From NCBI GenBank assembly GCA_023231115.1, contig JALNWA010000002.1, forward strand, positions 109,932 through 173,931: DNA of 64,000 nucleotides, written 5' to 3'. Positions within the stretch are counted from its first letter, which is position 1. The number at the start of each line of letters is the position of its first letter. The DNA comes from Candidatus Altimarinota bacterium (GTDB lineage: Bacteria > Patescibacteriota > Gracilibacteria > UBA1369 > LOWO2-01-FULL-3). Below the pieces are notes generated by a model. The model was not told the DNA's origin. It saw only the letters and a list, made by a program, of their open reading frames with translations, and ran no database searches. Shown here in pieces: positions 40,608 through 54,291 of this stretch. The translations under genes were made by a program, and so were the position numbers.

Positions 40608-40630
40608 AAAAGTTTATCTAAATCGGTAAT

Positions 40631-40813
40631 TTAGTTATTACCTTTCTTAGTGTCTTTTCTCTTGTGATTAGTGTGTTTTCTGCACTTTGGACAGAACTTG
40701 CTGATTTCTTTTACGATTTCATCATTTCTTCTTTTGTCGTACGCAGAGATGTCATTTCCTTTCTTGCATTCTGAGCAGAACCAAGTGCAATATTGACTTT
40801 TACCTTTTGCCAT
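40631..40813 (-). CDS. rpmG: 50S ribosomal protein L33
   Basis: The 60-residue basic protein has the zinc-ribbon form of L33: WFCSECKKGN and FCPKCRKHTNHKRKD, i.e. two CxxC pairs. L33 sits near the E site of the large subunit. It is slightly longer than the usual 49-55 residues, with a basic tail ending KKGNN. It is monocistronic with a terminator 23 bases downstream. Confidence 0.94.
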   Translation of the reverse strand: MAKGKSQYCTWFCSECKKGNDISAYDKRRNDEIVKEISKFCPKCRKHTNHKRKDTKKGNN

Positions 40814-40899
40814 ATAATTAATGTTACATTAAAAGCCTAGGAATATTATATCAATTTCGCTTATTGTCAATGAAATCTGCGCATAAAACAATAAAATTC

Positions 40900-40928
40900 T
40901 TGCATGAAATTTTCTTTTCATCTAAAAT
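40900..40928 (+). promoter_or_regulatory. Promoter upstream of the split tRNA-Thr gene
   Basis: TTGCAT (40900-40905) and TAAAAT (40923-40928) are 17 bases apart and point rightwards. A second -10-like GCTAAACT lies near 41027-41034. Either would transcribe the tRNA-Thr 5' half and then the intact tRNA-Thr of the mobile element. Confidence 0.55.
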
Positions 40929-40954
40929 ACTGCGCGAGAAACGGATAAAAGATT

Positions 40955-40988
40955 GGAGACCCTCTTTAAAAACCTAGAGGTCATCTCC
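40955..40988 (+). other. Strong hairpin in the tRNA-Thr leader
   Basis: GGAGA pairs with TCTCC and, inside it, CCTCT with AGAGG around a 10-base loop. It begins about 20 bases after the predicted transcription start. It may be a processed leader or a small RNA; no T-run follows. Confidence 0.5.
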
Positions 40989-41058
40989 ATCTTGCCCAAA
41001 TACAGTTGGCGTAAGCACAAAAATCCGCTAAACTCCATTTCGCAAACACAAAATCTTT

Positions 41059-41097
41059 GCCGTCTTAGCTCAGTGATAGAGCACTCCCTTGGTAAGG
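41059..41097 (+). pseudogene. 5' half of a tRNA-Thr(GGU) gene disrupted by an integrative element
   Basis: The sequence begins as a tRNA (acceptor GCCGTCT, TA, D-arm GCTC AGTGATA GAGC, anticodon stem CTCCC, loop TTGGTAA, then GG) and then departs from any tRNA sequence. Its missing 3' half is at 53908-53953. D-loop position 19 is A instead of the usual G, matched by U56 in the distant 3' half. Confidence 0.9.
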
Positions 41098-41161
41098 ATG
41101 TGCCCCTCCAGAGGAAATCGAGTTTACGGCATAGACAAAACAAAAACTTGAAATTTAGGAG

Positions 41162-41203
41162 GCTTCGAGAGTACCATCCCCGCGGGGTGAGGCTCTCGGA
41201 AGA
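41162..41203. other. GC-rich nested hairpin inside the left end of the element
   Basis: GAGAG/CTCTC with flanking TTC/GGAA pairs encloses an inner CCCCGCGGGG palindrome. It lies between the broken tRNA half and the intact tRNA-Thr and is conspicuously GC-rich. It could be an RNA processing or recombinase-binding feature. Confidence 0.5.
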
Positions 41204-41219
41204 GGAAATAAGGCAATAT

Positions 41220-41294
41220 GCTGTGGTAGCTCAGTGGCAGAGCACCACCTTGGTAAGGTGGGGGTCACGGGTTCAACTCCCGTTCACAGCTCCA
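41220..41294 (+). tRNA. tRNA-Thr (anticodon GGU) carried by the mobile element
   Basis: Complete cloverleaf: acceptor GCTGTGG/TCACAGC, D-arm GCTC AGTGGCA GAGC with G18-G19, anticodon stem CCACC/GGTGG around TTGGTAA, T-loop TTCAACT with C56, discriminator U and encoded CCA. It differs widely from the disrupted host tRNA, so it is not a simple duplication. It contains the same CTTGGTAAGG core (41249-41258). It lies in line with the host tRNA promoter and probably replaces the lost isoacceptor. Confidence 0.96.
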
Positions 41295-41309
41295 GTTTAA
41301 GGCACAGGA

Positions 41310-41333
41310 TGTAAATATTTTATAACATTTACA
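41310..41333. promoter_or_regulatory. Palindrome in front of the integrase gene
   Basis: Perfect arms TGTAAAT (41310-41316) and ATTTACA (41327-41333) flank an AT-rich centre with a -10-like TATAAC. The integrase ATG follows four bases later, so a bound regulator would block integrase expression. Confidence 0.5.
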
Positions 41334-41336
41334 ACC

Positions 41337-42233
41337 ATGTCTAATGCCACAATTCAGGAACTTTCTGAAAGCTATATGCAACGCTGTCTAGTCATCAGAA
41401 ATTATTCCCCCGCAACAATTATTGGTTATAAATGGACTTTCAAGCAGTTTTTTCAAGAGAGCAATATTCAGCATCCATCTGACTTAAATCTTCGAGTTAT
41501 AGAGGCTTGGTTTTTCAATGGTAGGCTGAACAGGAAATGGAGTTCAAACACCTTTAGAACCCATTTAAAACACTTGAACACTTTCTTTAAGTGGCTTATC
41601 AAAGAAGGGTATATAAAAGAGAATTGCCTCGACCAATTGGAAAAGCCACGAATGGAGCAACGAATCCCCAGAACATTGTCTAAGGATCAAGCTTTAAAGC
41701 TTCTTGAGTATTCATTCAACATGGCTTATCAATACCGGCTTTGCAAGTACAGGAATCGCGCAATCATCGGAATAATGTTGATGGCGGGATTGAGAAAAAA
41801 GGAAGTTTTAAGTCTAAAACTAAATGAAGTTTCTATCGAAAATAGCTCAATCTTTGTGAATCAAGGAAAAGGAAGCAAAGACCGGATAATTCCAATGAAC
41901 TCAAGATTGAAAATCATATTGTCCGAATATCTACAACAACGTGAGAAATTCGGCAAAGAATGTATAAACTTTTTTGTAAGCATCCAAGGCGATTACCCAC
42001 TAGGAGATAGCGGATTAAAAAAACTTATCGACATGCTAAAAAAGAAAGTCCGAATGGATTTCTCAGCCCACACCCTAAGACATGCTTTCGCCCGCCTAAT
42101 GCTCGAAGGAGGCTGTGACATCTACACACTTTCAAAACTCATGGGACATTCAAAAATAACAACCACGACTATTTATCTTTGTTGTTCAAATCAACAGATG
42201 AGCAAGAGTGTTGAGATGCATGCGTTGAATTAA
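41337..42233 (+). CDS. Tyrosine recombinase (integrase), left end
   Basis: The 298-residue XerC/D-like protein has an N-terminal core-binding SAM-like domain (SYMQRCLVIRNYSPATIIGYKWTF) and a catalytic domain with Arg in MAGLRKKEVLSL, Lys in GKGSKDR, HTLRHAFARLML, the GHSKITTT histidine and the Tyr in TTIYLCC. All catalytic residues are present. It lies next to the left attachment core, the classical position for the recombinase that inserts an element. A palindrome precedes it. Confidence 0.95.
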   Translation: MSNATIQELSESYMQRCLVIRNYSPATIIGYKWTFKQFFQESNIQHPSDLNLRVIEAWFFNGRLNRKWSSNTFRTHLKHLNTFFKWLIKEGYIKENCLDQLEKPRMEQRIPRTLSKDQALKLLEYSFNMAYQYRLCKYRNRAIIGIMLMAGLRKKEVLSLKLNEVSIENSSIFVNQGKGSKDRIIPMNSRLKIILSEYLQQREKFGKECINFFVSIQGDYPLGDSGLKKLIDMLKKKVRMDFSAHTLRHAFARLMLEGGCDIYTLSKLMGHSKITTTTIYLCCSNQQMSKSVEMHALN

Positions 42234-42257
42234 GAAATAAAAATATATTTATAATTA

Positions 42258-43823
42258 TTATTTTTCAATTATTTCCAAACTTTCTTCAAGCTCTTCCTTG
42301 TAAGGTTTTAACCCTCTAATCGTTCTCGCATTTCTTTTCTGTGCAAACCACCATAACCCTCTATGCAAAAAGAAAAGATAATCTTTGATCTTTTCTAATA
42401 TCAAAGGAACTTTGGACGTATATTTAAAATTTATAGTTTTATCTTCTTTTCTTTGCAACCCTACAACGCCATATCTATATAATTCTTGGATAAATATCTC
42501 TATTTTTTTCTTACCTATACTAGTTTTTTCCCCAAGATATTGACCCAACCTAGTTCTTAACTCAGCAGAATTAAAACCACTTTTTTTATCAAGAACATCT
42601 ATAAGTATATCTAAACCTTCTTGGTTAAGGTCATGTCCGATTATTTGTGTAGCCAAAAATAACTCATCCCTTAATTCATTTTTAAAATAATCAGAATATT
42701 CTATTTCAGATGATTCTATATTTTCAAATGTTGCAACATGCTTGAGACTTAATCTTTCACGCATTGCATAGCAAAATTTCAAGAAATCACGCGGACGATT
42801 AAAAGAGATTGCTACCATATACGCATAAAAGTTCGTTTTAAACCTATTCGTGTTAAAACTAGCAAGTGTTTCAGTAAATATTTCATCTGGGAATTGAGAC
42901 TTAATAGCCTCTATTGGGTTATCCAAACTACCTTGCAAATTTGAATTATAAAACGGCAATCTCCTTATGAGCAATCCCGCAAAGCTTTTTTCGTCCCATT
43001 CTAATTCAAGAGACCCCTCCCTTAGTTTATTAACATTAGACCCCTCCATAAGGTCAAATAAATCTACTCTTAATAAAGAAACAAATCTAAAATTCAATTT
43101 AGAATCTGAAATAGCAGTGTTATATGTATCAATTTGCAATAAAACTTCTTTGATTACAGCAATATCTTCTTTAATCATACTTGTATTAATATTCTCGAGA
43201 TGATCGCCTATGTCATCAATAAAAATAAAAATTGATTTATCTTTTGATAAACTTTGCCTAAGCGCATCAAATAAAGCACTAGGAGATTTGGAAATCACAG
43301 ACCTATTTAAAATCGAACCAGATTCAGAATCTACACCACCCTCAGCTTTTGCAAACAAATAAGACATCAACGCCTTCACAGAAAGTCCCGTTTTATTTGT
43401 TCGCTGATGTTCTATAAAAGTTTCATAATCTGAAATTTGGTGCAATCCATTTGAAGCCAAGAAATCTTTCCAATATTTTTCAGATTCTCCCGAAAAATTA
43501 TCGGTCTCTAATAATTTCTGTATAGTTCTAATTAAAATGTACTGCAATATAGAATTAGCACGATCCGATTTATCATCTTTGCAATTAATTGCAATATTTC
43601 TAAGAGACATTCTAAAAGCATAATCAATATTGTAATCTTCATGTTTTTGTTCGAGATACCTAGCTATGGCCGTTTTCCCAGATCCTTTTCTGCCTGCAAT
43701 AATAGAAAACGAAGACCCAATTAATTGCTGAATAAAACCAGCATCATGAAAACAATCCACTAGGTATTCATCTCTTTCCGCATCTGTGTGTTTCTTAATA
43801 CGAAAATCATCCATTTTTATCAA
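42258..43823 (-). CDS. P-loop ATPase of the Sll1717/KAP-like type
   Basis: The 521-residue product (start at M1 or M4, MDDFRIKKHTDAERDEYLVDCF) has Walker A AGRKGSGKTAIARYLEQ (near residue 45) and Walker B FIFIDDIGDHL (near 205), followed by a long helical region with a winged-helix-like C-terminus. The opening HTDAERDEYL...F preceding GRKGSGKT is typical of the Sll1717 family, often found in defence or mobile loci. Exact role unknown. It is convergent with the integrase. Confidence 0.85.
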   Translation of the reverse strand: MIKMDDFRIKKHTDAERDEYLVDCFHDAGFIQQLIGSSFSIIAGRKGSGKTAIARYLEQKHEDYNIDYAFRMSLRNIAINCKDDKSDRANSILQYILIRTIQKLLETDNFSGESEKYWKDFLASNGLHQISDYETFIEHQRTNKTGLSVKALMSYLFAKAEGGVDSESGSILNRSVISKSPSALFDALRQSLSKDKSIFIFIDDIGDHLENINTSMIKEDIAVIKEVLLQIDTYNTAISDSKLNFRFVSLLRVDLFDLMEGSNVNKLREGSLELEWDEKSFAGLLIRRLPFYNSNLQGSLDNPIEAIKSQFPDEIFTETLASFNTNRFKTNFYAYMVAISFNRPRDFLKFCYAMRERLSLKHVATFENIESSEIEYSDYFKNELRDELFLATQIIGHDLNQEGLDILIDVLDKKSGFNSAELRTRLGQYLGEKTSIGKKKIEIFIQELYRYGVVGLQRKEDKTINFKYTSKVPLILEKIKDYLFFLHRGLWWFAQKRNARTIRGLKPYKEELEESLEIIEK

Positions 43824-43885
43824 AATTATTTATTTAACCAAGGCATTGTACCCCACGTATAAAAAAAATAAACCAAAAACTATTT

Positions 43886-44869
43886 TCAACCCAACAACTT
43901 CGCCATCTCATCAGTTCCCCTATTTGTCAAAGCACACGTATGCTCTATATATCTCAGTGTAGTTGTTAGCCGAGTATGCCCCAAGTGCTGTTGTATGTCC
44001 TTAAGTGGCACACCTGCCGTATATAGCTTAGTCGCTACAAATCTTCTAATTGAGTATGCCGTAATCCTAAATCCGAGCTCTTTTGACAATTTTTTAAACA
44101 ACCCATTTATGCCTTTATACCTGAACCCACTTCTTCTTGATTGCGATGAAAATAAACATGATTCTTCTCTGCCCAAGCTTTGCCTTATTCTGATATAGCC
44201 ATCATACATATCCCTCAAAGAAGAAGGCATCCGATAAAATCTTGCACGCCCTTTTTGTTTTCTGCCTTGGATAACAATTTCATAACCATTCTTGTTTTTT
44301 TTAATATCTCTTATTTGCATTTGCTCCAATTCGCATGGCCTAGCGGCTGTTAGTAAAAACACGTCAAAAAGAAACTGGTTTCGCGCTCTTTCCAACCTTG
44401 TTTGCCTCCTTTTAAGTATGCAAATTCGTATAAGATCTACTTGTTCCTCTTTTAAAGTTAGCTGTTCATGCATAATTTCTTTGCATTTTCGTACCTTCAT
44501 GATTTTATTTTCCTGAACATATTCCATATCCTCCAACCACCTGAAATAAGTATTCAGATTCTTTATGTATGTATTCAAAGTAACAGGTGACCAATGTCGT
44601 TTCTCTCTTTCCGAATATAACGCTTCTCTCAAAACATTAGGAGTATTGCAATCTTCAATTGTCATAATATTTAATCGAATGACAGCAAATCTCAGCGCAT
44701 CTCTGACATTTAAGATAGTCACTGAACTTTTACCTTCTCTTCGATAATGCTTAACAAACTCATCCCAATATTTCCAAATTGGGGTTTTCCCATTGAGAAC
44801 AGACTTTTTCTCAATATTAAGAAAATTTACAGAATATAGATCTGTCGTAGACAAAGAAAATGTACGCAT
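43886..44869 (-). CDS. Second tyrosine recombinase
   Basis: The 327-residue product has an N-terminal core-binding region and a catalytic domain with Arg in TAARPCELEQM, RQKGRARFYRMP, SIRRFVATKLYTAGV, LGHTRLTTTLRYIEHT with the nucleophilic tyrosine. The usual HxxR is YSIR here: the first histidine is replaced by tyrosine, which is tolerated in some family members. It may serve a different att site or an earlier element. A small palindrome sits directly before its start. Confidence 0.9.
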   Translation of the reverse strand: MRTFSLSTTDLYSVNFLNIEKKSVLNGKTPIWKYWDEFVKHYRREGKSSVTILNVRDALRFAVIRLNIMTIEDCNTPNVLREALYSEREKRHWSPVTLNTYIKNLNTYFRWLEDMEYVQENKIMKVRKCKEIMHEQLTLKEEQVDLIRICILKRRQTRLERARNQFLFDVFLLTAARPCELEQMQIRDIKKNKNGYEIVIQGRKQKGRARFYRMPSSLRDMYDGYIRIRQSLGREESCLFSSQSRRSGFRYKGINGLFKKLSKELGFRITAYSIRRFVATKLYTAGVPLKDIQQHLGHTRLTTTLRYIEHTCALTNRGTDEMAKLLG

Positions 44870-44870
44870 A

Positions 44871-44887
44871 AGTTAAGATTGTTAACT
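44871..44887. promoter_or_regulatory. Palindrome before the second recombinase
   Basis: AGTTAA-GATTG-TTAACT begins one base upstream of the start codon of the leftward recombinase gene and could be an operator. Confidence 0.4.
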
Positions 44888-44943
44888 CATCTCGCACACT
44901 TACGGTCAATATTTATAGTCTCGCCGAATGACTTGTGGCTTCT

Positions 44944-45019
44944 GTTGCTGAATATGGTTATAGCTATATCTCTCGCTATGGTGTTATCGTGTCCGCCTTC
45001 ACGCGTTACGTTCAGCAAC
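44944..45019. repeat. 9-bp inverted repeat in the gap beside the second recombinase
   Basis: GTTGCTGAA (44944-44952) and TTCAGCAAC (45011-45019) are perfect inverted copies 58 bases apart in a non-coding gap (44870-45083). This might be a recombinase arm site or a hairpin RNA. Confidence 0.4.
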
Positions 45020-45083
45020 ATGATGAAATATAATTTCACTGAGCATTATATACCCATTTAAAAAGAAATTTCAAGTACCCCTC

Positions 45084-45509
45084 TCAATCCTCTCCAAAAG
45101 CCATCAATATCTCTGCAACTCTTTTCTTGTGAAAATCGTCAAGTTCAGAAGGCTCATCATCCGGAGGTACATTAGGAATATATTTTATAGAAAATTCATT
45201 TTTCAGTTTTCTCTCCAAATACCATTGAGCAACTTTTATATCTGTAAGATTATCCATGACCGTACGTCTTGCTTTCAAAATTAGCTTTTGCCTAAGTAGC
45301 CTTTTTCGCTCGGAAAACTCCGGATTTTGTTTCTGATAAGAATATAGTGTATCTGGGCTTATATTCGCATGTAGACAGCTTTCAGCGTCACTACAATCCA
45401 TAGAAAAAGCCTCTTCCAATTTTCCGAGTACTTCCTTGGTCATGACTGTTTTTCTGCCGGTTTTTTCTTTTGCACAAGATGTACTCTTTTTTTTATCAGA
45501 CATAACCAA
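45084..45509 (-). CDS. Terminase-small-subunit-like helix-turn-helix protein
   Basis: The 141-residue product has GRKTVMTKEVLGKLEEAFSMDCSDAESCLHANISPDTLYSYQKQNPEF, a helix-turn-helix of the type used by small terminase subunits and related phage/ICE proteins, followed by the family-typical DIKVAQWYLERKLKNEFS. In an element lacking any capsid or large terminase gene it probably acts as a DNA-binding regulator or packaging relic. The start could also be the Met at residue 3. Confidence 0.75.
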   Translation of the reverse strand: MVMSDKKKSTSCAKEKTGRKTVMTKEVLGKLEEAFSMDCSDAESCLHANISPDTLYSYQKQNPEFSERKRLLRQKLILKARRTVMDNLTDIKVAQWYLERKLKNEFSIKYIPNVPPDDEPSELDDFHKKRVAEILMAFGED

Positions 45510-45579
45510 GATTAAGACTACTGATCACATTGTAGTCAAAACCATCTATCATTAGCAAGAACTCATCTTTCTTGGCCAA

Positions 45580-45960
45580 CTATAAAATACTACAATTTAT
45601 ATAATAAACATCACTACCTGTAAGAGTAACAGTACATTTATAATCCGTCCTAACAGTCGCCCCATATGCATTTTCGGCATCTACGTAGGACTCAACAACA
45701 TATTTATCATTCCCAAGACTGGTATAAGTATTATAACGGCAAGCTTGATGTTCAGCACTAGAAGGAGATTTTAATTTATTTTCTATTTCTATCTGAGCAT
45801 AAGTACAAGCAGTCATTTCCTGAGTACTAACTGAAGACCCATAGGAAGAACTACTGCTTGAAGAAGAACTACTTCCATAACTAGAAGAATTGGAACTGTA
45901 ATCACTACATCCAACTAAAAAAAGTCCTATGAAAAAAGGAATAATCAAAAATTTGTACAT
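45580..45960 (-). CDS. Small lipoprotein with serine-rich linker
   Basis: The 126-residue product has a lipobox (FLVGC near residue 18), a run of serines with interspersed glycine and tyrosine (about 20-45) and a small C-terminal domain with four cysteines (ACTYAQ, QACRYN, YKCTVT, YINCSI) and KLKSPSSAEH. It resembles short surface lipoproteins carried by mobile elements; function unknown. Confidence 0.72.
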   Translation of the reverse strand: MYKFLIIPFFIGLFLVGCSDYSSNSSSYGSSSSSSSSSSYGSSVSTQEMTACTYAQIEIENKLKSPSSAEHQACRYNTYTSLGNDKYVVESYVDAENAYGATVRTDYKCTVTLTGSDVYYINCSIL

Positions 45961-45993
45961 TTTTATAACGATTAAGATTTACACAACAACACG

Positions 45994-46025
45994 ATATCCC
46001 ATTTTGGGATATTCGTAAATGGGAT
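45994..46025. promoter_or_regulatory. Operator-like palindrome upstream of the XRE gene
   Basis: ATATCCCA-TTT-TGGGATAT (45994-46012) is a perfect palindrome with 8-bp arms. A further half site TGGGAT follows at 46020-46025. It lies 27 bases before the start codon of the XRE regulator, the usual place for an autorepressor site. Confidence 0.7.
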
Positions 46026-46038
46026 TTATTCTAATTTC

Positions 46039-46254
46039 ATGTCTAGTATACATTCTAAAGAATACGCTGATTTAATTTCGCGCTTAATAAAAGCACGACA
46101 AGACTCAGGGCTTACACAAGCTCAGGTTGCAAAAATCCTCAAAAAACCACAGTCCTATCTGTCAAAAATAGAAACATGCCAAAGAAGAGTCGACGCATTA
46201 GAGATAAAAACCTTGGCAAAAATATACAAAAGCGATATTTCGGATATAATCTAG
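46039..46254 (+). CDS. XRE-family transcriptional regulator
   Basis: The 71-residue protein is a single helix-turn-helix domain: LISRLIKARQDSGLTQAQVAKILKKPQSYLSKIETCQRRVDALEIKTLAKIY. It is of the short Cro/C-protein size and very probably represses its own operon via the palindrome just upstream, controlling the two downstream defence-like genes. Confidence 0.93.
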   Translation: MSSIHSKEYADLISRLIKARQDSGLTQAQVAKILKKPQSYLSKIETCQRRVDALEIKTLAKIYKSDISDII

Positions 46255-46283
46255 TTAGGCTATTCGGCTTTTACTCAAAACAA

Positions 46284-46760
46284 ATGAAATATCAGATATC
46301 AATAACGACTGTTGGGTTAGGTTGCTATAACCATATAGCCAAATTACCAACAAACAGTACGGCATCAGATCTTCAAAAATATCTTGAATTGAATGATTTT
46401 TGTTCTTTATACAGAAATGGAAAAAAATTACTCCTAACTTCACGCCTGAAGAATAATGACATAATTTGCATGACAACTCCTATCAGAGGCGCTGTTGACA
46501 TTAAATGCAGAGGAAAAAGGTGGCGAATACCAAAAAGTGATATTGACGATAAAAAAGTTAGTAATTTCCATGCTCACAATTATGATAATAATGAGATTTT
46601 AGACTTATATACGGGCTACATTTACAAAAATAATCAACAACACAAAATTACCAAAAAAGAATGGTTACAGATTCTTTATGAAATTAGTCAAAGTAAGGAG
46701 CAAAATTTGAGTAGCAAAGCAAAAGATATTTTAAAAAAAAATTCACATGCAAGAAGTTAA
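46284..46760 (+). CDS. Beta-grasp (MoaD/ThiS-like) protein of unknown role
   Basis: I start at 46284 (MKYQISITTVGLG), giving 158 residues; an upstream ATG at 46176 lies inside the XRE gene. The first 65 or so residues fit a ubiquitin-like beta-grasp: SITTVGLGCYNHIAKLP, LQKYLELNDFCSLYRNGKKL, then RLKNNDIICMTTPIRGA, which parallels the MoaD/ThiS ending LxDGDxVxxxPPxxGG without the terminal GG. A basic second domain (KRWRIPKSDI) follows. It overlaps the start of the STAND NTPase gene by 14 bases, so the two are coupled. The fold call is inference. Confidence 0.65.
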   Translation: MKYQISITTVGLGCYNHIAKLPTNSTASDLQKYLELNDFCSLYRNGKKLLLTSRLKNNDIICMTTPIRGAVDIKCRGKRWRIPKSDIDDKKVSNFHAHNYDNNEILDLYTGYIYKNNQQHKITKKEWLQILYEISQSKEQNLSSKAKDILKKNSHARS

Positions 46761-49700
46761 TTGGGGAAACTTTAAAGCAAAATTTAACGGTAGAGAACAA
46801 AAATTTTTTGAATGGCTGTGCTACCTTTTATTTTGCAAAGAATTTAATCAACCACATGGAATTTTTCGCTTCGTAAATCAATCAGGAATGGAAACAAATC
46901 CCATTAAAATTGGTAAGGACTATATTGCTTGGGAGGCAAAATTTTATGAAGACAAATTAACAAATCATAAAGATGAATTCATTAAAAAGATAAAAATAGC
47001 CAAGAATAAAAATCCAGAAATAACCAAAATGTTTTTCTATACTCCGATTGATTGGACGGAAAGTAGCAAAAAAACTAAAAGAGTTACGAATAAGCAGAAT
47101 GAAATAGTAAAGTTTGGGAAAGAGAAAAATATTAAAATTATTTTTAGAGGTGCTAGCTTTTTTGAATCCACATTCGTTTCTATCGAAAACGAGCTTATTG
47201 CCAAGCATTTCTATAGCCTACACGAAAACATTCTTGATTTAATTAAAAATCAACAAATACATTCAGAAAACATCTTAAGCAAAATACAACCACACATCAT
47301 TTTTAATGGAAAAAACATTGAAATTGACAGAAGTAGGGAATTAGAAAAATTAAAAGAATATTCAGAAAGAATTTTAATTTTAAGCGGAGAAGGAGGAATC
47401 GGAAAAACAGCCATTGTTAAAAATCTTTATTTACAACTAAAAGGAAAACAACCTTTTTACATTTTTGAAGCAACCGAATTTGAATTAAGCAATGTAAATA
47501 ACTTATGTCCAAATCTAAATTTCCAAGACTTTCTGGAAGCACATAAAGATGAAGATAACAAAATCATTGTAATTGATTCGGCAGAAAAATTATTAGACTT
47601 AAAAAACACCGATCCATTTAAAGAGTTTTTAGCCATTACACTCAAAACCAACTGGAAACTAATCTTTACTGCAAGAGACAACTATTTAAAAGATTTGAAT
47701 GATCAATTTTGGGAAATTTATAAATTAGTCCCCTCGAACATAAATTTGCAAAAATTAAACTTAAAAGAACTAAATGAAATTTCTGACAAGCATCATTTTT
47801 CAACACCTAAAGATGAAAATCTATTAGATTTTATTAAAAATCCATTCTACCTAAACGAGTACTTAAAATTTTACAAAGAAAAAGAAGAAACAAGCTACAT
47901 AGACTTCAAAGAAAAACTCTGGGATAAAAATATAAAGAAGTCCAAGCCGGCAAGAGAACAATGTTTTTTAAAAATAGCTTTTGAAAGAGCAAATGATGGA
48001 GAATTTTTTGTAAATCCAAGTTGCGAAGCTTATATTCTGGATAATGAATTAAGAAATGATGGAATTTTGGGTTACGAATCGCCACATGGATATTTTATTA
48101 CACATGATCTTTACGAAGAATGGGCTTTAGAAAAAATCATAGAAAAAGAATTCATAAAAAAACCTGAAAATGACGACTTCTTCAAAAAAATTGGTAACTC
48201 ACTAGCTATCCGTAGAGCTTTTAGAAACTGGATATCAGAAAAATTACTTTTAGACAGTAAGGAAATAAAAAAATTCGTTGAAGAAGTCATTGAAAATAAA
48301 GAAATAGAACAATTGTGGAAAGATGAAACATTGGTGTCTATTTTGCTTTCGGATTATTCAGAAAAATTTTTTGAAATATTTAAAGATAAGCTACTAACGA
48401 ACAACCAAGAGCTATTAAAAAAACTAACCTTTTTATTAAGAATTACGTGCAAAGAAATTGATAGCGACCTTCTTAAACAATTAGGGGTTAGAAACGCAAA
48501 TTTATTTTCGATAAAATACGTCTTAACTAAGCCAAAAGGTAAGGGCTGGGAATATCTTATTAAATTTATTTATGATAATTTAGTCAAAATAGGCATTGGG
48601 AATATTTACTTCATTTTACCGGTGATTTATGACTGGAATTACAAATTCAAAGAAGGAGAAACTACAAAGTTTTCGAGTCTAATTGCATTGCAGTATTATC
48701 AATGGATCATTAAAAAAGATGTTTATTTTTCACGTGATAATGATGTTAAAGCAACACTTTTTAAAACCATTTTATATGGAGCTTCAGAAATAAAAGATGA
48801 GCTTGGAAAAATCATTGAGGCAATTTTAAAGAATAAATGGAAAAATTACAGAGATCCCTATTCCGACTTATCACAAGTTATTTTGACAAAATTGGAGGGA
48901 GTTAATATAACCAAAGTATTACCTCAACATATTTTAAGTCTTGCCAATTTATTTTGGTCTTTCACTCCTAAAAAAGCTGAATTTCATCAGTATTCAAGTC
49001 CGGATATAGAACAAGAGTTTGGCATAGAAGATGATCACTTTGAATATTTTCCGGCAAGTTCATATCAAACCCCAATATATTGGCTTCTTCAATATGCATT
49101 GAAAGAAACTGTAGATTTTATTTTAGGATTTACAAATAAAACAGTAGAAAGTTTTGCTAAATCTGATTTTGCAAAACATGAAATTGAAGAAGTAGAAGTT
49201 TTTACAGATACAAATAAGGCAATAAAACAATACATAAGCGATAGACTCTGGTGCACATATAGAGGTACTCAAGTTGCTCCTCTCATTTTAGAGTCGACAC
49301 ATATGGCTTTAGAAAAGTTTTTTCTCGAAACAGGGGAAAAGATGGAGTCTAAAACTTTAGAAAATTGGCTTTTATACATGCTTAAAAATTCCAAATCTGC
49401 TTCCATTTCGGGAATAGTGACAAGTGTCGTATTAGCATACCCAGAAAAAACTTTTAACATTGCTAAAATTCTTTTCAGAACAAAGGGATTCTTTCTTTAT
49501 GACACACATAGGTTAATCTTAGATGAAGGACAAAAAAGCTCTCTTTTAATGTTAAAAAAAATTTCTGGAGTCAATTTTAAAAACGAGATTCATGACAACG
49601 AAAGACTGGAAACTTGCGACAAAAAACACAGAAAATGGGCTTTAGAAAATTTATTTTTAAATTATCAATTTTTCAGAAGCGATGAAACAAGCGAAAAAGA

Positions 49701-51498
49701 AGCAAAAGAAAGACGAAAAATATTGTGGAGGATACTAGACAATTATTACAAAGAATTAGCCGTCAAATCAAAAAAGACCGAATTGGATAAAACTTGGGAG
49801 CTTTACCTTGCAAGAATGGACGGTAGAAAAATGAATCCAGTCACAAAAACGACAAAAGAAGGACTTATAATCTACTGGAATCCCCAAATTGAACCAGAAT
49901 TAAAAAAACATAGCGATGAATCAATAGAAAAAACAACCAAACCGCTTAAATACACCACACTAAAGCTATGGGCAAGCTACAAAATGAAAAATGATGAAAA
50001 GTATAAACAATACGAACAGTATGAAAAAAATCCAAAACTTGCTTTAAAAGAAGCAGAAGAAATTATTGAAAGAATGAAAGTGGCAAAAAAGCCAGAACTT
50101 CTTAATTTTCAGTATTCGGAAGATGAGAATTTCTATCTTTTTAACAACGCAATCCCTGCAGACGTTTGCTCTGTTCTGACAAAAGACTATTTCGATAAAC
50201 TTTCAAAAAATGAGAAAATTTTTTGCAAAAACATTATTTTAGAATTTGCACAATTATCATTAACTCAAAAGCACAAATATCAAATTTCAGACGGGACAGA
50301 ATCAGCTATTTCCGTATTACCAATTTTGTTACAAGAGTTTCCAGAAGAAAAAAAGATCATAATTCAAATCCTGTTACTTACTCTATTCAACGAAGATCCC
50401 ATAAACATGGCAGGAAACCATTTTAATATTTTTCCAATTATGGCAATTCATAAACTCTGGTTTAATAATTTCGATAATGCTCAATCCCTTCTCTTCGGAT
50501 ATTTATTATTAAAACCACGGTATGAAAAGCTGAGAGACGAACTACGTGAAGAAAATTACAAAAGAAACATCTACAAACTTCATGAAAATGAAATAATAGA
50601 CAAATTTTTAACAAAAAATAAAGCCTATTTAAAGAAAATTATAGAAAACAAAATTTCTATAGGTGATCTAAAAAACATAGAAAAATTGGATCTATATGTA
50701 TTAAATACAGCTTTTCAATTAATCCCATTAAAAACAACTAAGAAAAACCATGAGAAGTTAGCCCAATTAATAATTTTAACTTTTTCGAAAGCTCTATCAG
50801 CTATCAAAAGAGATGAGAGGGTCGATCCCATGGTAAAACATGCCTTTTTGAAAAAATTAGCAGACTTTGTTTTAAACTCTTCCGAGCAAGATATTTCTAA
50901 TTATTTAAAACCATTTATTGATGATTTCACAGGTTCAGAAGCTATGGCTGATTTATTCCAAGAATTTATTTTGGCAGAAGATAGATTAAATACTTATAAC
51001 AATTTTTGGCAAGTTTGGGGTCTATTTTATAAAAAAGTGGTTAAATTATGCGAAGATACCAAAAACCATTGGTATCTAGATAGAATTGTAAAAAGTTATC
51101 TTTTTGCTCAGACTCAGTGGAAAGAAACAACTGTAGATTGGCACACGATAAAGGATGGCAATAAAAGCTTCTTCGGAGAAATCGTAAAAAGCATAGGACA
51201 CTATCCTTCTGTACTTTTTTCAATTTCAAAATTATTAAATGATATTGGAAGTATTTTTTTGGAAGATGGTGTTTCTTGGATTTCCTCAATGTTATGTAAA
51301 AATAAAAATTTATGGACAGACGAGTTAGAACCCGATACGATTTATTACATAGAAATTATTGCAAAGAAGCATATTTATAAGAATCGTGAGAAAATAAGAA
51401 AAACAAAAAAATCAAAACAAGAGATATTGACAATATTAGACTTTCTAATAAAAAAAGGATCTGTCGTTGGATACATGCTTAGAGAAAGTGCTATATAG
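46747..51498 (+). CDS. Nuclease-STAND NTPase, Avs4-like candidate anti-phage sensor
   Basis: The 1583-residue product has three parts. The N-terminus resembles an Mrr-like PD-(D/E)xK nuclease: NQSGMETNPIKIG with E49, then AWEAKFYE with E63 and K65. Next is a STAND-type NTPase with Walker A GEGGIGKT (214-221), Walker B IIVID (273-277) and FTARDNYL. The last 1000 or so residues are helical-repeat sequence, which in STAND proteins recognises the trigger. Order and size match Avs4 (AVAST type IV), whose members sense phage portal proteins and then degrade DNA. Location in a mobile element supports defence. Assignment needs a profile or structure comparison. Confidence 0.8.
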   Translation: MQEVNWGNFKAKFNGREQKFFEWLCYLLFCKEFNQPHGIFRFVNQSGMETNPIKIGKDYIAWEAKFYEDKLTNHKDEFIKKIKIAKNKNPEITKMFFYTPIDWTESSKKTKRVTNKQNEIVKFGKEKNIKIIFRGASFFESTFVSIENELIAKHFYSLHENILDLIKNQQIHSENILSKIQPHIIFNGKNIEIDRSRELEKLKEYSERILILSGEGGIGKTAIVKNLYLQLKGKQPFYIFEATEFELSNVNNLCPNLNFQDFLEAHKDEDNKIIVIDSAEKLLDLKNTDPFKEFLAITLKTNWKLIFTARDNYLKDLNDQFWEIYKLVPSNINLQKLNLKELNEISDKHHFSTPKDENLLDFIKNPFYLNEYLKFYKEKEETSYIDFKEKLWDKNIKKSKPAREQCFLKIAFERANDGEFFVNPSCEAYILDNELRNDGILGYESPHGYFITHDLYEEWALEKIIEKEFIKKPENDDFFKKIGNSLAIRRAFRNWISEKLLLDSKEIKKFVEEVIENKEIEQLWKDETLVSILLSDYSEKFFEIFKDKLLTNNQELLKKLTFLLRITCKEIDSDLLKQLGVRNANLFSIKYVLTKPKGKGWEYLIKFIYDNLVKIGIGNIYFILPVIYDWNYKFKEGETTKFSSLIALQYYQWIIKKDVYFSRDNDVKATLFKTILYGASEIKDELGKIIEAILKNKWKNYRDPYSDLSQVILTKLEGVNITKVLPQHILSLANLFWSFTPKKAEFHQYSSPDIEQEFGIEDDHFEYFPASSYQTPIYWLLQYALKETVDFILGFTNKTVESFAKSDFAKHEIEEVEVFTDTNKAIKQYISDRLWCTYRGTQVAPLILESTHMALEKFFLETGEKMESKTLENWLLYMLKNSKSASISGIVTSVVLAYPEKTFNIAKILFRTKGFFLYDTHRLILDEGQKSSLLMLKKISGVNFKNEIHDNERLETCDKKHRKWALENLFLNYQFFRSDETSEKEAKERRKILWRILDNYYKELAVKSKKTELDKTWELYLARMDGRKMNPVTKTTKEGLIIYWNPQIEPELKKHSDESIEKTTKPLKYTTLKLWASYKMKNDEKYKQYEQYEKNPKLALKEAEEIIERMKVAKKPELLNFQYSEDENFYLFNNAIPADVCSVLTKDYFDKLSKNEKIFCKNIILEFAQLSLTQKHKYQISDGTESAISVLPILLQEFPEEKKIIIQILLLTLFNEDPINMAGNHFNIFPIMAIHKLWFNNFDNAQSLLFGYLLLKPRYEKLRDELREENYKRNIYKLHENEIIDKFLTKNKAYLKKIIENKISIGDLKNIEKLDLYVLNTAFQLIPLKTTKKNHEKLAQLIILTFSKALSAIKRDERVDPMVKHAFLKKLADFVLNSSEQDISNYLKPFIDDFTGSEAMADLFQEFILAEDRLNTYNNFWQVWGLFYKKVVKLCEDTKNHWYLDRIVKSYLFAQTQWKETTVDWHTIKDGNKSFFGEIVKSIGHYPSVLFSISKLLNDIGSIFLEDGVSWISSMLCKNKNLWTDELEPDTIYYIEIIAKKHIYKNREKIRKTKKSKQEILTILDFLIKKGSVVGYMLRESAI

Positions 51499-51541
51499 TT
51501 TCACCCTAATTTAGACTATTCTCTTAATTTATGTTATTGTT

Positions 51542-51661
51542 CCTTTCGCACAGGGTGTGCCTCTCCGCCACCCCAACCATATCAAAAGCGGCACTCTACA
51601 ATTAGGGCTACGCACAGCCAGAAACATCTATTTATTCATGCTGAATTTACTCGGCAAGAAA
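51542..51661 (+). repeat. Right-end repeat of the element, copy 1
   Basis: An 87-base block (51542-51628) is 94% identical to 53800-53886 (five differences by eye), and weaker similarity continues to the core-like ACTCGGCAAG. It holds hairpins GCACA/TGTGC and GGCT/AGCC; two differences lie in the loop of the latter. Its position implies a former attachment site between two tandem units. Confidence 0.8.
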
Positions 51662-51663
51662 GA

Positions 51664-51975
51664 TTATTCCTTAAGCCCCTCATCTGATAAACATTTTTTA
51701 TACCTAGAAAGTTGTTCTTCCTCAATCTCAGCTTTTGATTGATTTTTAGGCTCTAATTCTTCTTTTATTCCATCTAATATTTTAAAAGCCTCTTCTTTAC
51801 TCATTCCTTCATCTTTACGGTTTTGAAGCCATCTTTTGTCTTGTTCTGTATAGAATGCAGACGAACTAACTGAGCAATTTTTTCTTATCATTGATGGTCT
51901 TAGTTCGTACCAGTAAAAAATTCCCCCTAAAATTAGAAGTATTAAAGCAATGATAATATAATTTTGTTTTTTCAT
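51664..51975 (-). CDS. Small anchored protein
   Basis: The 103-residue product has one N-terminal membrane helix (about residues 6-24) and a charged, helical remainder (QDKRWLQNRKDEGMSKEEAFKIL, KSQSKAEIEEEQLSRYKKC). Its start overlaps the stop of the 56-residue membrane protein gene by four bases (ATGA), so they are coupled. Function unknown. Confidence 0.72.
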   Translation of the reverse strand: MKKQNYIIIALILLILGGIFYWYELRPSMIRKNCSVSSSAFYTEQDKRWLQNRKDEGMSKEEAFKILDGIKEELEPKNQSKAEIEEEQLSRYKKCLSDEGLKE

Positions 51976-52142
51976 TTGGTATTTTCTATTAAAAATAAAT
52001 ATATTCCGCCTATTAGCGCAATAATTACTATCAAAAGCACGCTCAAGCTAGAATTTCCACGACTATCTAACAGATAAAATATTTCATAAAGTCCAGCTAT
52101 GATGCTTACTGCTAATCCTATTTTTAGATATGTTTTATCCAT
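51972..52142 (-). CDS. 56-residue membrane protein
   Basis: The short frame encodes MDKTYLKIGLAVSIIAGLYE, a polar turn with SRGNSS, and a second hydrophobic helix ending FLIENTK, i.e. two membrane spans. It overlaps the next gene by four bases and lies 22 bases after the repeat lipoprotein, so the three form one leftward operon. Confidence 0.72.
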   Translation of the reverse strand: MDKTYLKIGLAVSIIAGLYEIFYLLDSRGNSSLSVLLIVIIALIGGIYLFLIENTK

Positions 52143-52164
52143 ATTTATTTTTTTAAATTAACAA

Positions 52165-53367
52165 TTAGAACTTAATGACCTTTTCACTCTTATCCAAATA
52201 AATAGTTTTAACAACCTCATCATCTTTATTAAATTCTGTACGAACAATTGCCACTCCAGATGCCTTCAATTGCTCGTCAGCACCAAACACCTTCGTTTCG
52301 ATTAAATTCCCCTTCTCATCGTATTTGAGTCTCATCATTGCTGTCCCATCTTTATTCTCTTTCAATCTTTCATCTATACCGAACAAACGAACTTCTATTA
52401 CATCCCCTCCATTATCATACTTGTAGCTCGCAATTGCTGTTCCAGATTCATCCTCCTTTAGCTGTTCGTCAACACCAAACGACTTCCTTTCAATCATATT
52501 GCCAGTTTCATCGTACACCATACGCATAATTGCTTGTCCACCAACATCTTTTAGTTGCTCATCTGTGCCAAACATTTTACCTTCAATTATATTGCCACTC
52601 TCATTATAAGTAATGCGCTTCATAAATACACCCTTTTTATCTTCTTTTGGTTGCTCATCTGTGCCAAAATTTTTAACTTCAATCATGTTCCCAGTTTCAT
52701 CGTACACCATACGCATAATTGCTACACCCTTTTCATCTTCAACGAATAGCCCACCTTTTGCATAGTTAGATTTTTCAATTAGGTTACCTTCTTTATCATA
52801 TTTAAAACGCATTTCATAAACTCCTTGTTTATCTGAAATTCTATTACCTTTTTCGTCAACACAAACAGACGTTATTCTCCTCCCATTTTCGTCAACAGTG
52901 AATATATACTGGAAAACACCTTTTGCATCCTTAGTGGAGTTCCCATCTTTATCATAATTAAAAAGGGAAATTCGATGATTTTTCTCATCTAATTTAAACC
53001 TAATAGAGTTTATTCCTTCTATAAAAGCAGGGTGACCATTCTTGTCCTGAAAAATTCTACTTTCAAATCCTTCTTTATAGCCAATAGTCATACTTGCAAA
53101 CTCTATCATCTGTAAATTACTCATCATCTGTGAATTACTCAATTTTCCCGCCTTTAAAAATTCCACCTTTTCAATCCTTCCATCTTTATCATATATAAAA
53201 TGATAACTATTAACTTTTTTGCCTAATTCATCTGAAATCGGATATCTCCCCACAATAGAATTAGATCCATCATCCATGCTAATTTGCCTATAATAATTTG
53301 ATGAAGTTTTACCCGAACATCCAGTTATTGCTAACGATATTAAGAGTAAGCTAATTATTTTTTTCAT
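52165..53367 (-). CDS. Lipoprotein with about nine 32-residue YD-like repeats
   Basis: The 400-residue product has a lipobox (LAITGC near residue 17) and tandem repeats of roughly 32 residues with the pattern YDExGNxIExKxFGxDEQLKED and a following MRxxY. Such repeats form extended beta structures, as in YD/RHS-like or MORN-like proteins. It is probably surface-exposed and linked to the two small membrane proteins downstream. It sits in the right-hand unit of the mobile element. Confidence 0.8.
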   Translation of the reverse strand: MKKIISLLLISLAITGCSGKTSSNYYRQISMDDGSNSIVGRYPISDELGKKVNSYHFIYDKDGRIEKVEFLKAGKLSNSQMMSNLQMIEFASMTIGYKEGFESRIFQDKNGHPAFIEGINSIRFKLDEKNHRISLFNYDKDGNSTKDAKGVFQYIFTVDENGRRITSVCVDEKGNRISDKQGVYEMRFKYDKEGNLIEKSNYAKGGLFVEDEKGVAIMRMVYDETGNMIEVKNFGTDEQPKEDKKGVFMKRITYNESGNIIEGKMFGTDEQLKDVGGQAIMRMVYDETGNMIERKSFGVDEQLKEDESGTAIASYKYDNGGDVIEVRLFGIDERLKENKDGTAMMRLKYDEKGNLIETKVFGADEQLKASGVAIVRTEFNKDDEVVKTIYLDKSEKVIKF

Positions 53368-53453
53368 TTGAGATTTAATTAAAAAGTTTCTATTCTTTTG
53401 CCATTATAGTTGTCCTATACTCTTATTGCTATGTTTAATAATAATCTTTCCAT

Positions 53454-53753
53454 ATGAACACGATCCAAAAAAGAATTCTTGCAATATTCGTACCTATCCT
53501 AGTTTTTGCCGTAGTTTATGGCATTGCAGGCACAGCACTAGATAAAAAATGCCCTTCTGAAGAAAAGATTGGAGCTCTTACACTATGCGATAGATATAAG
53601 CTTATAAATGCTCAAAAAATTCCAGAAGGATATGATGCTCAAGAAGTCAACGCCTTCGATTTCGAAAAAACCTATATCATTTGGGGGCTAGGAGTTTTAG
53701 CCATCTTTATCTTCGAATTCAAACTTTTCGAAGACAAAAAAAAGAAAAGCTAA
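53454..53753 (+). CDS. Small two-helix membrane protein
   Basis: The 99-residue product has a hydrophobic helix at about residues 8-28, a loop of about 45 residues with two cysteines (KKCPSEEK, LTLCDRY) and a second helix (about 75-90) followed by a lysine-rich tail. The topology suggests both ends inside the cell. No family recognised. Confidence 0.68.
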   Translation: MNTIQKRILAIFVPILVFAVVYGIAGTALDKKCPSEEKIGALTLCDRYKLINAQKIPEGYDAQEVNAFDFEKTYIIWGLGVLAIFIFEFKLFEDKKKKS

Positions 53754-53799
53754 AATTTCACGCAAACCGTTTTGCTAAAACCTTAACTATGCTACAATC

Positions 53800-53917
53800 C
53801 CTTTCACACAGGGTGTGCCTCTCCGCCACCCCAACCATATCAAAAGCGGTACTCTACAATTAGGGCTATACACAGCCAAAAACATCCTTCCAATCATACA
53901 GGTTTTACTTGGTAAGG
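53800..53917 (+). repeat. Right-end repeat of the element, copy 2, ending at the attachment core
   Basis: Same 87-base block as copy 1, followed by the core CTTGGTAAGG that opens the tRNA 3' half. A -10-like TGCTACAAT (53790-53798) precedes it, so it may be transcribed. The motif GGGTGTGCCTCTCC (also in copy 1) resembles GGATGTGCCCCTCC at the left end (41096-41109). Confidence 0.8.
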
Positions 53918-53953
53918 GAGAGGTCGGGGGTTTGATTCTCCTAGACGGCTCCA
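53908..53953 (+). pseudogene. 3' half of the disrupted tRNA-Thr(GGU) gene
   Basis: From the core CTTGGTAAGG the sequence reads GGGAG (anticodon stem), AGGTC, T-arm GGGGG TTTGATT CTCCT, acceptor AGACGGC, U and CCA. It completes the 5' half at 41059-41097 exactly: GCCGTCT/AGACGGC and CTCCC/GGGAG pair without mismatch. Confidence 0.92.
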
Positions 53954-53966
53954 GTTTTGAAAGAAA

Positions 53967-54182
53967 TTACAAAGAATCCACCCACAATTTCTGAACTTTT
54001 TCTCTTGCCCAAGGCGTTTGCCTTAGGAATTTGAGGCTTGAAGTAATTGTTGGGTAGAACATAAAACATCTTATTGGAATTTTTTTCGCCAAAGATTCCC
54101 ACCCATGTTTTTCAACCAAATCTTCAAGTATTTTTTTTAATGTCACTCCATGCAAAGGGTCTTTTTGTGGTTGTGTGTCCAT
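53967..54182 (-). CDS. VF530-like small DNA-binding protein (DUF2132)
   Basis: The 71-residue product (start at 54182, MDTQPQKDPLHGVTL) matches the VF530 family nearly throughout: KDPLHGVTLKKILEDLVEKHGW, IPIRCFMFYP, SSLKFLRQTPWAREKVQKLW. Proteins of this family are small winged-like folds reported to bind DNA; their function is unknown. It lies just outside the right end of the mobile element, 13 bases past the tRNA 3' half, convergent to it. Confidence 0.92.
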   Translation of the reverse strand: MDTQPQKDPLHGVTLKKILEDLVEKHGWESLAKKIPIRCFMFYPTITSSLKFLRQTPWAREKVQKLWVDSL

Positions 54183-54291
54183 GATAAAATCATACAATTT
54201 CAGGTAACCGGAGTCCACCTAAAAAAATTGGAAGACGCAATCAGGTAATCCATTTTGCTAAAGCCACAAAAGTGCTACACTCCTTTTCGCA

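What the first reader, a model, noticed from the sequence alone, without database searches (positions are those of the whole stretch)
41059..53953. Host tRNA-Thr(GGU) split in its anticodon loop by a 12.8-kb integrative element
Seen: a tRNA 5' half at 41059-41097 and a 3' half at 53908-53953 share the core CTTGGTAAGG. Joined, they give a 75-nt tRNA with a perfect 7-bp acceptor stem (GCCGTCT/AGACGGC), a perfect anticodon stem (CTCCC/GGGAG) and an encoded CCA. The D-loop has A19 instead of G19 and the T-loop U56 instead of C56, so the conserved G19-C56 tertiary pair is replaced by A19-U56; this compensatory change across 12.8 kb strongly indicates one former gene. Known: integrases often use tRNA genes, but most elements restore the gene. 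Here the sequence after the core at the left end does not rebuild the anticodon or T stems.
Basis: partly seen in the sequence, partly recalled or inferred. Interest (0 to 1): 0.9.

Follow-up and report, generated by a model that had tools for sequence, protein, structure and literature searches.

The report
Island breaks host tRNA, brings spare
A mobile defence island in an uncultured bacterium of the candidate phyla radiation has cut the host's threonine tRNA gene in two and carries a complete replacement tRNA gene just inside its own left end; relatives suggest that such islands have swapped this tRNA gene more than once.

Summary
In detail: 41059-41097 and 53918-53953 join into a tRNA-Thr(GGU). 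Two relatives, G400 and G303, keep the uninterrupted locus (rpmG, intact tRNA-Thr, VF530); their matches to both window flanks meet exactly at the 10-bp core. It is only 72% identical to the split tRNA. This works like 'tRNA-dependent lysogeny' of actinobacteriophages (PMC10865867), but here in a 12.8-kb island carrying Avs4 that does not look like a phage. Tandem 5' halves 150-161 bp apart (broken half plus spare) occur in 10 of 89 genomes of the order. In 10 elements with both ends found, the distant halves form 12 of 12 scored pairs in 8 and 11 of 12 in 2. At the window's own locus, G001 carries a split tRNA of foreign type, so the native gene had apparently been replaced before. In G431 the element body is gone but spare and an integrase stub remain. 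Verdict: new variant of a known kind; expression of the spare is inferred, not shown.

The parts
40631..40813 (-). rpmG (ribosomal protein L33), left host flank
   Evidence: NCBIfam TIGR01023, 27.1 bits against cut-off 23.95; orthologue in the same place in G400, G303, G279, G001
41006..41034 (+). possible promoter TTGGCG-17-TAAACT of the host tRNA gene, now in front of the broken half
   Evidence: read by eye; similar letters in G001 and G400; NOT listed by the consensus scan, so weak
41059..41097 (+). 5' half of the split host tRNA-Thr(GGU), core included
41088..41097 (+). left attachment core CTTGGTAAGG (anticodon loop)
41096..41109 (+). motif GGRTGTGCCYCTCC, putative arm-type integrase site, copy 1
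   Evidence: exact match, 3 in window, 0.30 expected with up to 2 mismatches
41098..41219 (+). 122-nt element spacer between broken half and spare; no terminator-like site, one weak promoter-like site 41148-41177
41220..41294 (+). spare: complete tRNA-Thr(GGU) carried by the element, with CCA
   Evidence: ARAGORN, Rfam RF00005 67.7 bits; 72% to split tRNA, 94% to G001 spare
41337..42233 (+). tyrosine integrase
   Evidence: PF00589 3.3e-30, phrog_1 4.4e-48; family
42258..43823 (-). P-loop ATPase, Sll1717 family
   Evidence: NF047389 167.5 bits against cut-off 75
43886..44869 (-). second tyrosine recombinase
   Evidence: PF00589 3.9e-18; minus-strand counterpart in 8 of 9 Thr-clade elements clustered, window included; one of the 8 only a 74-aa piece
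45084..45509 (-). terminase-small-subunit-like DNA-binding protein
   Evidence: phrog_4102 8.5e-17
46039..46254 (+). small HTH regulator
   Evidence: PF01381 2.3e-09
46747..51498 (+). Avs4 (AVAST type 4) anti-phage defence protein, 1583 aa
   Evidence: PDLC02169 2218 bits; NF041815 2035.5 bits against cut-off 1500
51530..51659 (+). older, decayed copy of the right arm with core TCGGCAAG: probable trace of an earlier element end
   Evidence: 83% copy of 53788-53917; exact motif at 51553-51566
52165..53367 (-). cargo: YD/RHS-repeat lipoprotein-like protein
   Evidence: PF05593 3.2e-08
53788..53917 (+). right arm of the element, ending in the core; motif copy at 53811-53824
53908..53953 (+). right core plus 3' half of the split host tRNA-Thr(GGU), with CCA
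53967..54218 (-). VF530 gene, right host flank
   Evidence: PF09905 2.4e-29; next to the tRNA in G400, G303 and, behind the 3' half, in G001

Best explanation
A tyrosine-integrase island recombined with the anticodon loop of the host's tRNA-Thr(GGU) through a core of about 10 bp. The exchange destroys the host gene: its 5' half stays at the left end and its 3' half at the right end, 12.8 kb apart. The island brings its own complete tRNA-Thr(GGU), fixed 122 nt inside its left end and just ahead of the integrase gene, and this spare takes over decoding. Shown by sequence: the split, the empty site in relatives, the spare and its foreign origin, the repeated occurrence in related elements. Inferred: that the spare is transcribed (by read-through from the old host promoter or from a promoter of its own), that it is the cell's only tRNA-Thr(GGU), and that loss of the island is therefore harmful. 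Because the spare can stay when the island decays, and can itself be split by the next island, these elements appear to exchange the host's tRNA-Thr gene over time.
For: Joined flanks are a tRNA, single junctions are not. Empty site in G400 and G303, matches overlapping by exactly the 10-bp core. Intact spare inside the insert, 72% identical to the split tRNA while the split tRNA is 93-97% identical to intact genes of G400, G279 and G067. Same layout (5' half, about 110-200 nt, complete tRNA, integrase) in L001, L002, L003, G287, G233, G054 and, with an interrupted spare, G041, and in G405, G409, G413, G393, G401, G432. Halves at far ends pair 12/12 in 8 of 10 elements and 11/12 in 2; 0 of 100,000 re-pairings as good. 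By the 5' and 3' patterns the spare is the only intact tRNA-Thr(GGU) in 12 of 14 element or scar genomes. G431: element body lost, spare and 37-codon integrase stub kept, at the same locus where G432 has the full element. G001: foreign-type tRNA split at the window's own locus.
Against: The window's own genome is not held, so another tRNA-Thr(GGU) elsewhere in it cannot be excluded; G393 has one. MAG completeness is unknown for all genomes used. No expression, excision or essentiality data. G409 also fits a classical rebuild, because its right 3' half is identical to the 3' half of the spare; in G413 they share T arm and acceptor. In G041 the only GGU tRNA found is a spare interrupted by about 220 nt with no Rfam intron match. 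Right ends were not found for G002, G003, G233 and G393; those of G001 and G287 lie on other contigs.
Confidence: 0.9

Rival explanations
1. The two halves are transcribed apart and trans-spliced into a working tRNA, as in archaeal split tRNAs; the intact copy is redundant.
For: The halves still pair perfectly. In G405 and G432 the 60 nt after the left core and before the right core are far more complementary than shuffles (0 of 500 each).
Against: In the window (118 of 500 shuffles as low), G054 (267), G041 (55), G413 (406) and G401 (488) there is no such complementarity. The complementarity in G405 and G432 comes from an inverted copy of the putative integrase motif. Bacteria are not known to have the splicing endonuclease used in archaea (recalled). 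An intact tRNA of the same anticodon stands next door.
Confidence: 0.03
2. Classical tRNA island: the tRNA at 41220-41294 is the host's gene rebuilt at the left end, and the halves at 41059 and 53908 are leftovers of earlier integrations.
For: In relatives of the integrase, G220 and G067, a complete tRNA stands next to the integrase and an identical 3' fragment at the far end. G409 can be read this way. A decayed second right arm at 51530-51659 shows that more than one event touched this site.
Against: The right-hand 3' half of the window pairs 12/12 with the half at 41059 but only 8/12 with the 5' half of the intact copy. Host flanks in G400 and G303 run straight into the half at 41059 and out of the half at 53908. 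The intact copy is 72-76% identical to the native tRNAs of the 7 related genomes with the A19-U56 type.
Confidence: 0.05
3. Assembly artefact: a chimeric contig made of two tRNA-Thr loci.
For: The window is probably a metagenome contig (no genome held), and tRNA genes are repeated sequence.
Against: Independent assemblies with different sequences show the same layout; 7 of them show both ends with halves that match each other on one contig (G054, G041, G405, G409, G413, G401, G432).
Confidence: 0.02

Closest known systems
tRNA-dependent lysogeny of actinobacteriophages (Fionnbharth and others; Guerrero-Bustamante and Hatfull 2024, PMC10865867; abstract, passages and sections 6, 10 and 11 seen)
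   Same: Tyrosine integrase; attB in a host tRNA; short core (8-17 bp there, 10 here); tRNA not rebuilt at either junction; [quoted passage not shown]
   Different: There temperate phages of Actinobacteria with tRNA-Lys, -Ile2 or -Leu targets, and in Fionnbharth the tRNA lies inside another gene with its own tested promoter. Here non-phage islands of candidate-phyla bacteria, a tRNA-Thr(GGU) target, and a spare at a fixed place just inside the left end, in line behind the broken half. Scar and serial replacement were not in the parts of that paper I saw.
Phage-related sequences of Sinorhizobium meliloti that replace an inactivated host tRNA (PMC11476347, passages seen; also mentioned in PMC12429752, passages seen)
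   Same: Host tRNA inactivated and replaced by a tRNA of the inserted element, which resembles genes of unrelated species.
   Different: Phage-related, Alphaproteobacteria; no serial replacement at one locus in the passages seen.
Classical tRNA-gene genomic islands (Islander, PMC4383910, search listing only)
   Same: Tyrosine integrase next to a tRNA; core in the tRNA; the other half displaced to the far end.
   Different: There the island carries the 3' part and rebuilds the gene. Here it does not, although the integrase relatives G220 and G067 do.
Tycheposons (seen only through passages of PMC10872708; the original paper was not in the library)
   Same: Island starting at a tRNA, tyrosine recombinase, cargo.
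   Different: In the passages seen they are described as starting at a tRNA; a broken host tRNA plus a complete spare is not mentioned there.

Membership tests
tRNA-dependent lysogeny | tyrosine integrase and attB inside a host tRNA gene | tested here: met
tRNA-dependent lysogeny | short common core, no functional tRNA rebuilt at attL or attR | tested here: met
   10-bp core; ARAGORN finds nothing on the left junction up to 41215 or on the right junction
[quoted passage not shown]
   tRNA-Thr(GGU) at 41220-41294
tRNA-dependent lysogeny | broken host tRNA is single-copy | tested here: inconclusive
   window genome not held; the 3' pattern finds one tRNA-Thr(GGU) in each of 7 genomes without such an element, and 58 of 70 genomes with a 5' match have exactly one
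tRNA-dependent lysogeny | element is a temperate phage | tested here: not met
   of 10 element proteins scanned with PHROGs, only a terminase-small-subunit-like protein recalls phage structure or packaging; so it works like this system but is not filed as lysogeny
tRNA-dependent lysogeny | element tRNA needed for survival after integration | not testable with these tools
   needs an experiment
classical tRNA genomic island | element carries the 3' part so that the target tRNA is rebuilt | tested here: not met
   left junction has no tRNA; right 3' half fits the spare's 5' half only 8/12
Avs4 / AVAST type 4 (cargo) | full-length match above the curated cut-off | tested here: met
   NF041815 2035.5 bits against 1500, PDLC02169 over residues 1-1581 of 1583

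The most novel reading that the evidence does not exclude
These islands form a tRNA-exchange machine of candidate-phyla bacteria. Each integration kills the resident tRNA-Thr(GGU) and installs the island's own, placed behind the captured host promoter. The new tRNA makes the island hard to lose, outlives it when the rest decays (G431), and becomes the target of the next island (G001; probably G393, whose island carries a spare identical to the native gene of G081). An essential translation gene thus travels and turns over by site-specific recombination.
Probability: 0.6. Interest if true: 0.78.

Novelty: new variant of a known kind. Interest (0 to 1): 0.64.

Why it matters
It takes the 'break the tRNA, bring a spare' strategy, proven in actinobacteriophages in 2024, to small non-phage islands of candidate-phyla bacteria, at least one of which carries a phage-defence gene. 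It offers a natural addiction device without a toxin: losing the island would mean losing an essential tRNA. It also gives a concrete route by which essential tRNA genes are horizontally replaced, which bears on tRNA phylogenies and on annotation: the half tRNA beside an intact one is neither junk nor an intron. The serial replacement is testable in existing metagenomes.

Tried and rejected
Tried without result: the whole genome of the window is not held. Integrase relatives in viral contigs: 2 stretches matched a pattern, none confirmed. Phage records: 624 records match at E up to 1e-5, all below 60% identity, so nothing close. The spacer between half and spare contains hairpin-like letters in several elements; the alignment is too variable to call a conserved RNA, and I built no covariance model. 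The insert in the G041 spare looked like a group I intron by eye, but Rfam gave no intron match (the only match, a sub-threshold tmRNA, covers the tRNA end). Two intact or chance pairs were dropped: G407 (two intact tRNA-Thr 6.1 kb apart) and G312 (one chance hit, one intact tRNA); G282 has an intact tRNA-Thr plus a nearby tRNA-like piece with another front and was also dropped. G393 was left out of the tree because its integrase lies in two frames. Trans-splicing was considered and found unsupported for the window, but not excluded for G405 and G432. In the integrase tree the ten Thr elements form one clade (97/97), while G054, G041 and G233 fall in another with L004 and L005; whether the broken-half-plus-spare layout arose once or twice is open.
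Full report
What is there. Joined at the shared core CTTGGTAAGG they give a 75-nt tRNA-Thr(GGU); the left junction (up to 41215) and the right junction give none alone. All 17 scored pairs form. Inside the insert, 122 nt after the left core and 42 nt before a tyrosine integrase, lies a complete tRNA-Thr(GGU), 41220-41294.

The empty site. Two relatives in the family of G001, G400 and G303, have lipoprotein gene, rpmG, intact tRNA-Thr(GGU) and VF530 in a row with no insert. Window 40626-41097 is 89.0% identical to G400 and window 53908-54185 is 89.6% identical; the two matches overlap in G400 by 10 bases, the core. G303 shows the same with 87.5% and 86.6%. G279 shows only the left side; VF530 was not found in it, nor in G067, G081, G337 or G393. 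The window halves have T7-A66 where the 8 intact relatives fetched have G7-C66, so the pair was kept by a double change; that is most simply explained if the gene was intact until recently. The A19-U56 pair is shared by 7 of those 8 relatives and is a lineage trait.

The spare is foreign. The split tRNA is 97% identical to the intact gene of G067, 94% to G279 and 93% to G400. The spare is 72% identical to the split tRNA and 72-76% to the native genes of the seven A19-U56-type relatives, but 94% to the spare of the related element in G001. Between the window and G001 spares, pair 51-63 changed from G-C to A-T on both sides (read), as expected of a gene kept as a tRNA.

A family of such elements. 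Integrase relatives came from genome contigs (13 loci) and from 379 genomes of the phylum (139 with a match at 1e-20; 7 genomes with a match of 41% identity or more). The layout 5' half, spacer, complete tRNA, integrase occurs in the window and in G001, G002, G003, G287, G233 and G054, and with an interrupted spare in G041. A pattern for the 5' half of tRNA-Thr(GGU), searched in 89 genomes of the order of G001, matches in 70; 58 of these have exactly one match; 10 of 89 have two matches 150-161 bp apart, the signature of broken half plus spare: G001, G002, G287, G393, G401, G405, G409, G413, G431, G432. In the larger phylum sample 282 of 379 genomes match, but the list of places was cut, so I give no count there. 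Both ends were found for 10 elements: window, G001, G287, G405, G401, G432, G413, G409, G054, G041. In 8 of 10 the own halves make 12 of 12 acceptor and anticodon pairs, in G413 and G409 11 of 12; 0 of 100,000 random re-pairings reach the total. G409 is ambiguous, since its right 3' half equals that of its spare. Ends of G002, G003, G233 and G393 were not found; those of G001 and G287 lie on other contigs. In G001 the VF530 neighbour supports the link, in G287 only pairing and arm motif. G220 (tRNA-Thr UGU) and G067 (tRNA-Lys) have the classical rebuilt layout with an identical displaced 3' fragment.

Is the spare the only copy? A pattern for the 3' half was run on 21 genomes. Taken with the 5' pattern, the spare is the only intact tRNA-Thr(GGU) seen in 12 of 14 element or scar genomes. 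In G041 the only copy is the interrupted spare. G393 has a further intact copy at a contig edge. In the 7 genomes without such an element one tRNA each was seen, besides chance matches in G067 and G337. Completeness of these genomes is unknown. The window's genome is not held.

Replacement over time. At the window's own locus, G001 also has an element (integrase 96% identical), but its split tRNA is not of the native type: it is 86% identical to the two spares and 72-76% to the native-type genes, while the flanks are orthologous (85% over the left flank; VF530 on the right). The simplest reading is that the native gene had been replaced before the present split. In G393 the spare is identical to the native tRNA of G081, while its broken half is of another type. 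G431 and G432 share one locus: G432 has a full 8-kb element, G431 keeps broken half, spacer, spare and the first 37 or so codons of an integrase, then host genes. No second tRNA-Thr(GGU) and no orphan 3' half was seen in G431.

How it probably works. Shown by sequence: exchange within the anticodon loop. In G001 and G432 the base before TGGTAA differs between the ends, so in those two the exchange lies within TGGTAA or just after it. A motif GGRTGTGCCYCTCC stands at the left core (41096), in the right arm (53811) and in an older decayed right arm (51553); three exact matches in the window, 0.30 expected with up to two mismatches. I take it as an arm-type integrase site; this is inference. Transcription of the spare is inferred: the spacer has no terminator-like site; a weak promoter-like site lies at 41148-41177, and a possible host promoter before the broken half (41006-41034) was read by eye and not listed by the scan. 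Read-through and own promoter therefore both remain open.

Cargo. The element carries Avs4, an Sll1717-family ATPase, a second tyrosine recombinase, an HTH protein and one terminase-small-subunit-like protein. Of ten larger cargo proteins scanned from six further elements with full or partial bodies (L003, L001, G401, G405, G413, G054) and G432, one (G401) is a type IIG restriction enzyme-methyltransferase; G405 and G054 have weaker PADLOC matches, and the G432 hit is an SNase/LTD/S-layer protein. So defence cargo is clear in two elements, not a rule.

Compared with what is known. The principle is tRNA-dependent lysogeny (PMC10865867: abstract, passages, sections 6, 10, 11 seen). Replacement of host tRNA by a phage-related element is also reported in Sinorhizobium (PMC11476347, passages). 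The island here meets the integration features but not the phage feature. I found no report from candidate-phyla bacteria in searches (0 papers; 1 paper, a glacier virome, listing only); one search lists 18 papers with the phrase tRNA-dependent lysogeny, of which I looked into 3. The library holds only open-licence papers, so this is no proof of novelty.

Noticed in passing
51530-51659: Second, decayed copy (83%) of the right arm with core TCGGCAAG, 2.26 kb before the true right end: trace of an earlier or tandem element.
   Followed up: partly
L059 about 17956-18250 (G041): The spare tRNA-Thr is interrupted between positions 36 and 37 by roughly 220 nt; it is the only GGU tRNA found in that genome, so the insert would have to be spliced; no Rfam intron match.
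   Followed up: partly
L095 and L102 (G405, G432), bases beside both cores: Left and right core flanks are strongly complementary (0 of 500 shuffles as low), unlike the five other elements tested; inverted integrase sites or pairing half-transcripts.
   Followed up: partly
L005 9805-9876 and 17174-17246: An integrase relative stands next to a tRNA-Glu(CTC), with a second complete tRNA-Glu(CTC) 7.3 kb downstream; layout not resolved.
   Followed up: no
window 46747-51498: Very well-preserved Avs4 (2218 bits in PADLOC) in a candidate-phyla bacterium.
   Followed up: partly
L100 10167-12953 (G401): A related tRNA-replacing island carries a type IIG restriction enzyme-methyltransferase.
   Followed up: no
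L054, L057, L059: LOOT RNA (RF03000) above the gathering score once in each of these fetched stretches of G233, G054 and G041.
   Followed up: no
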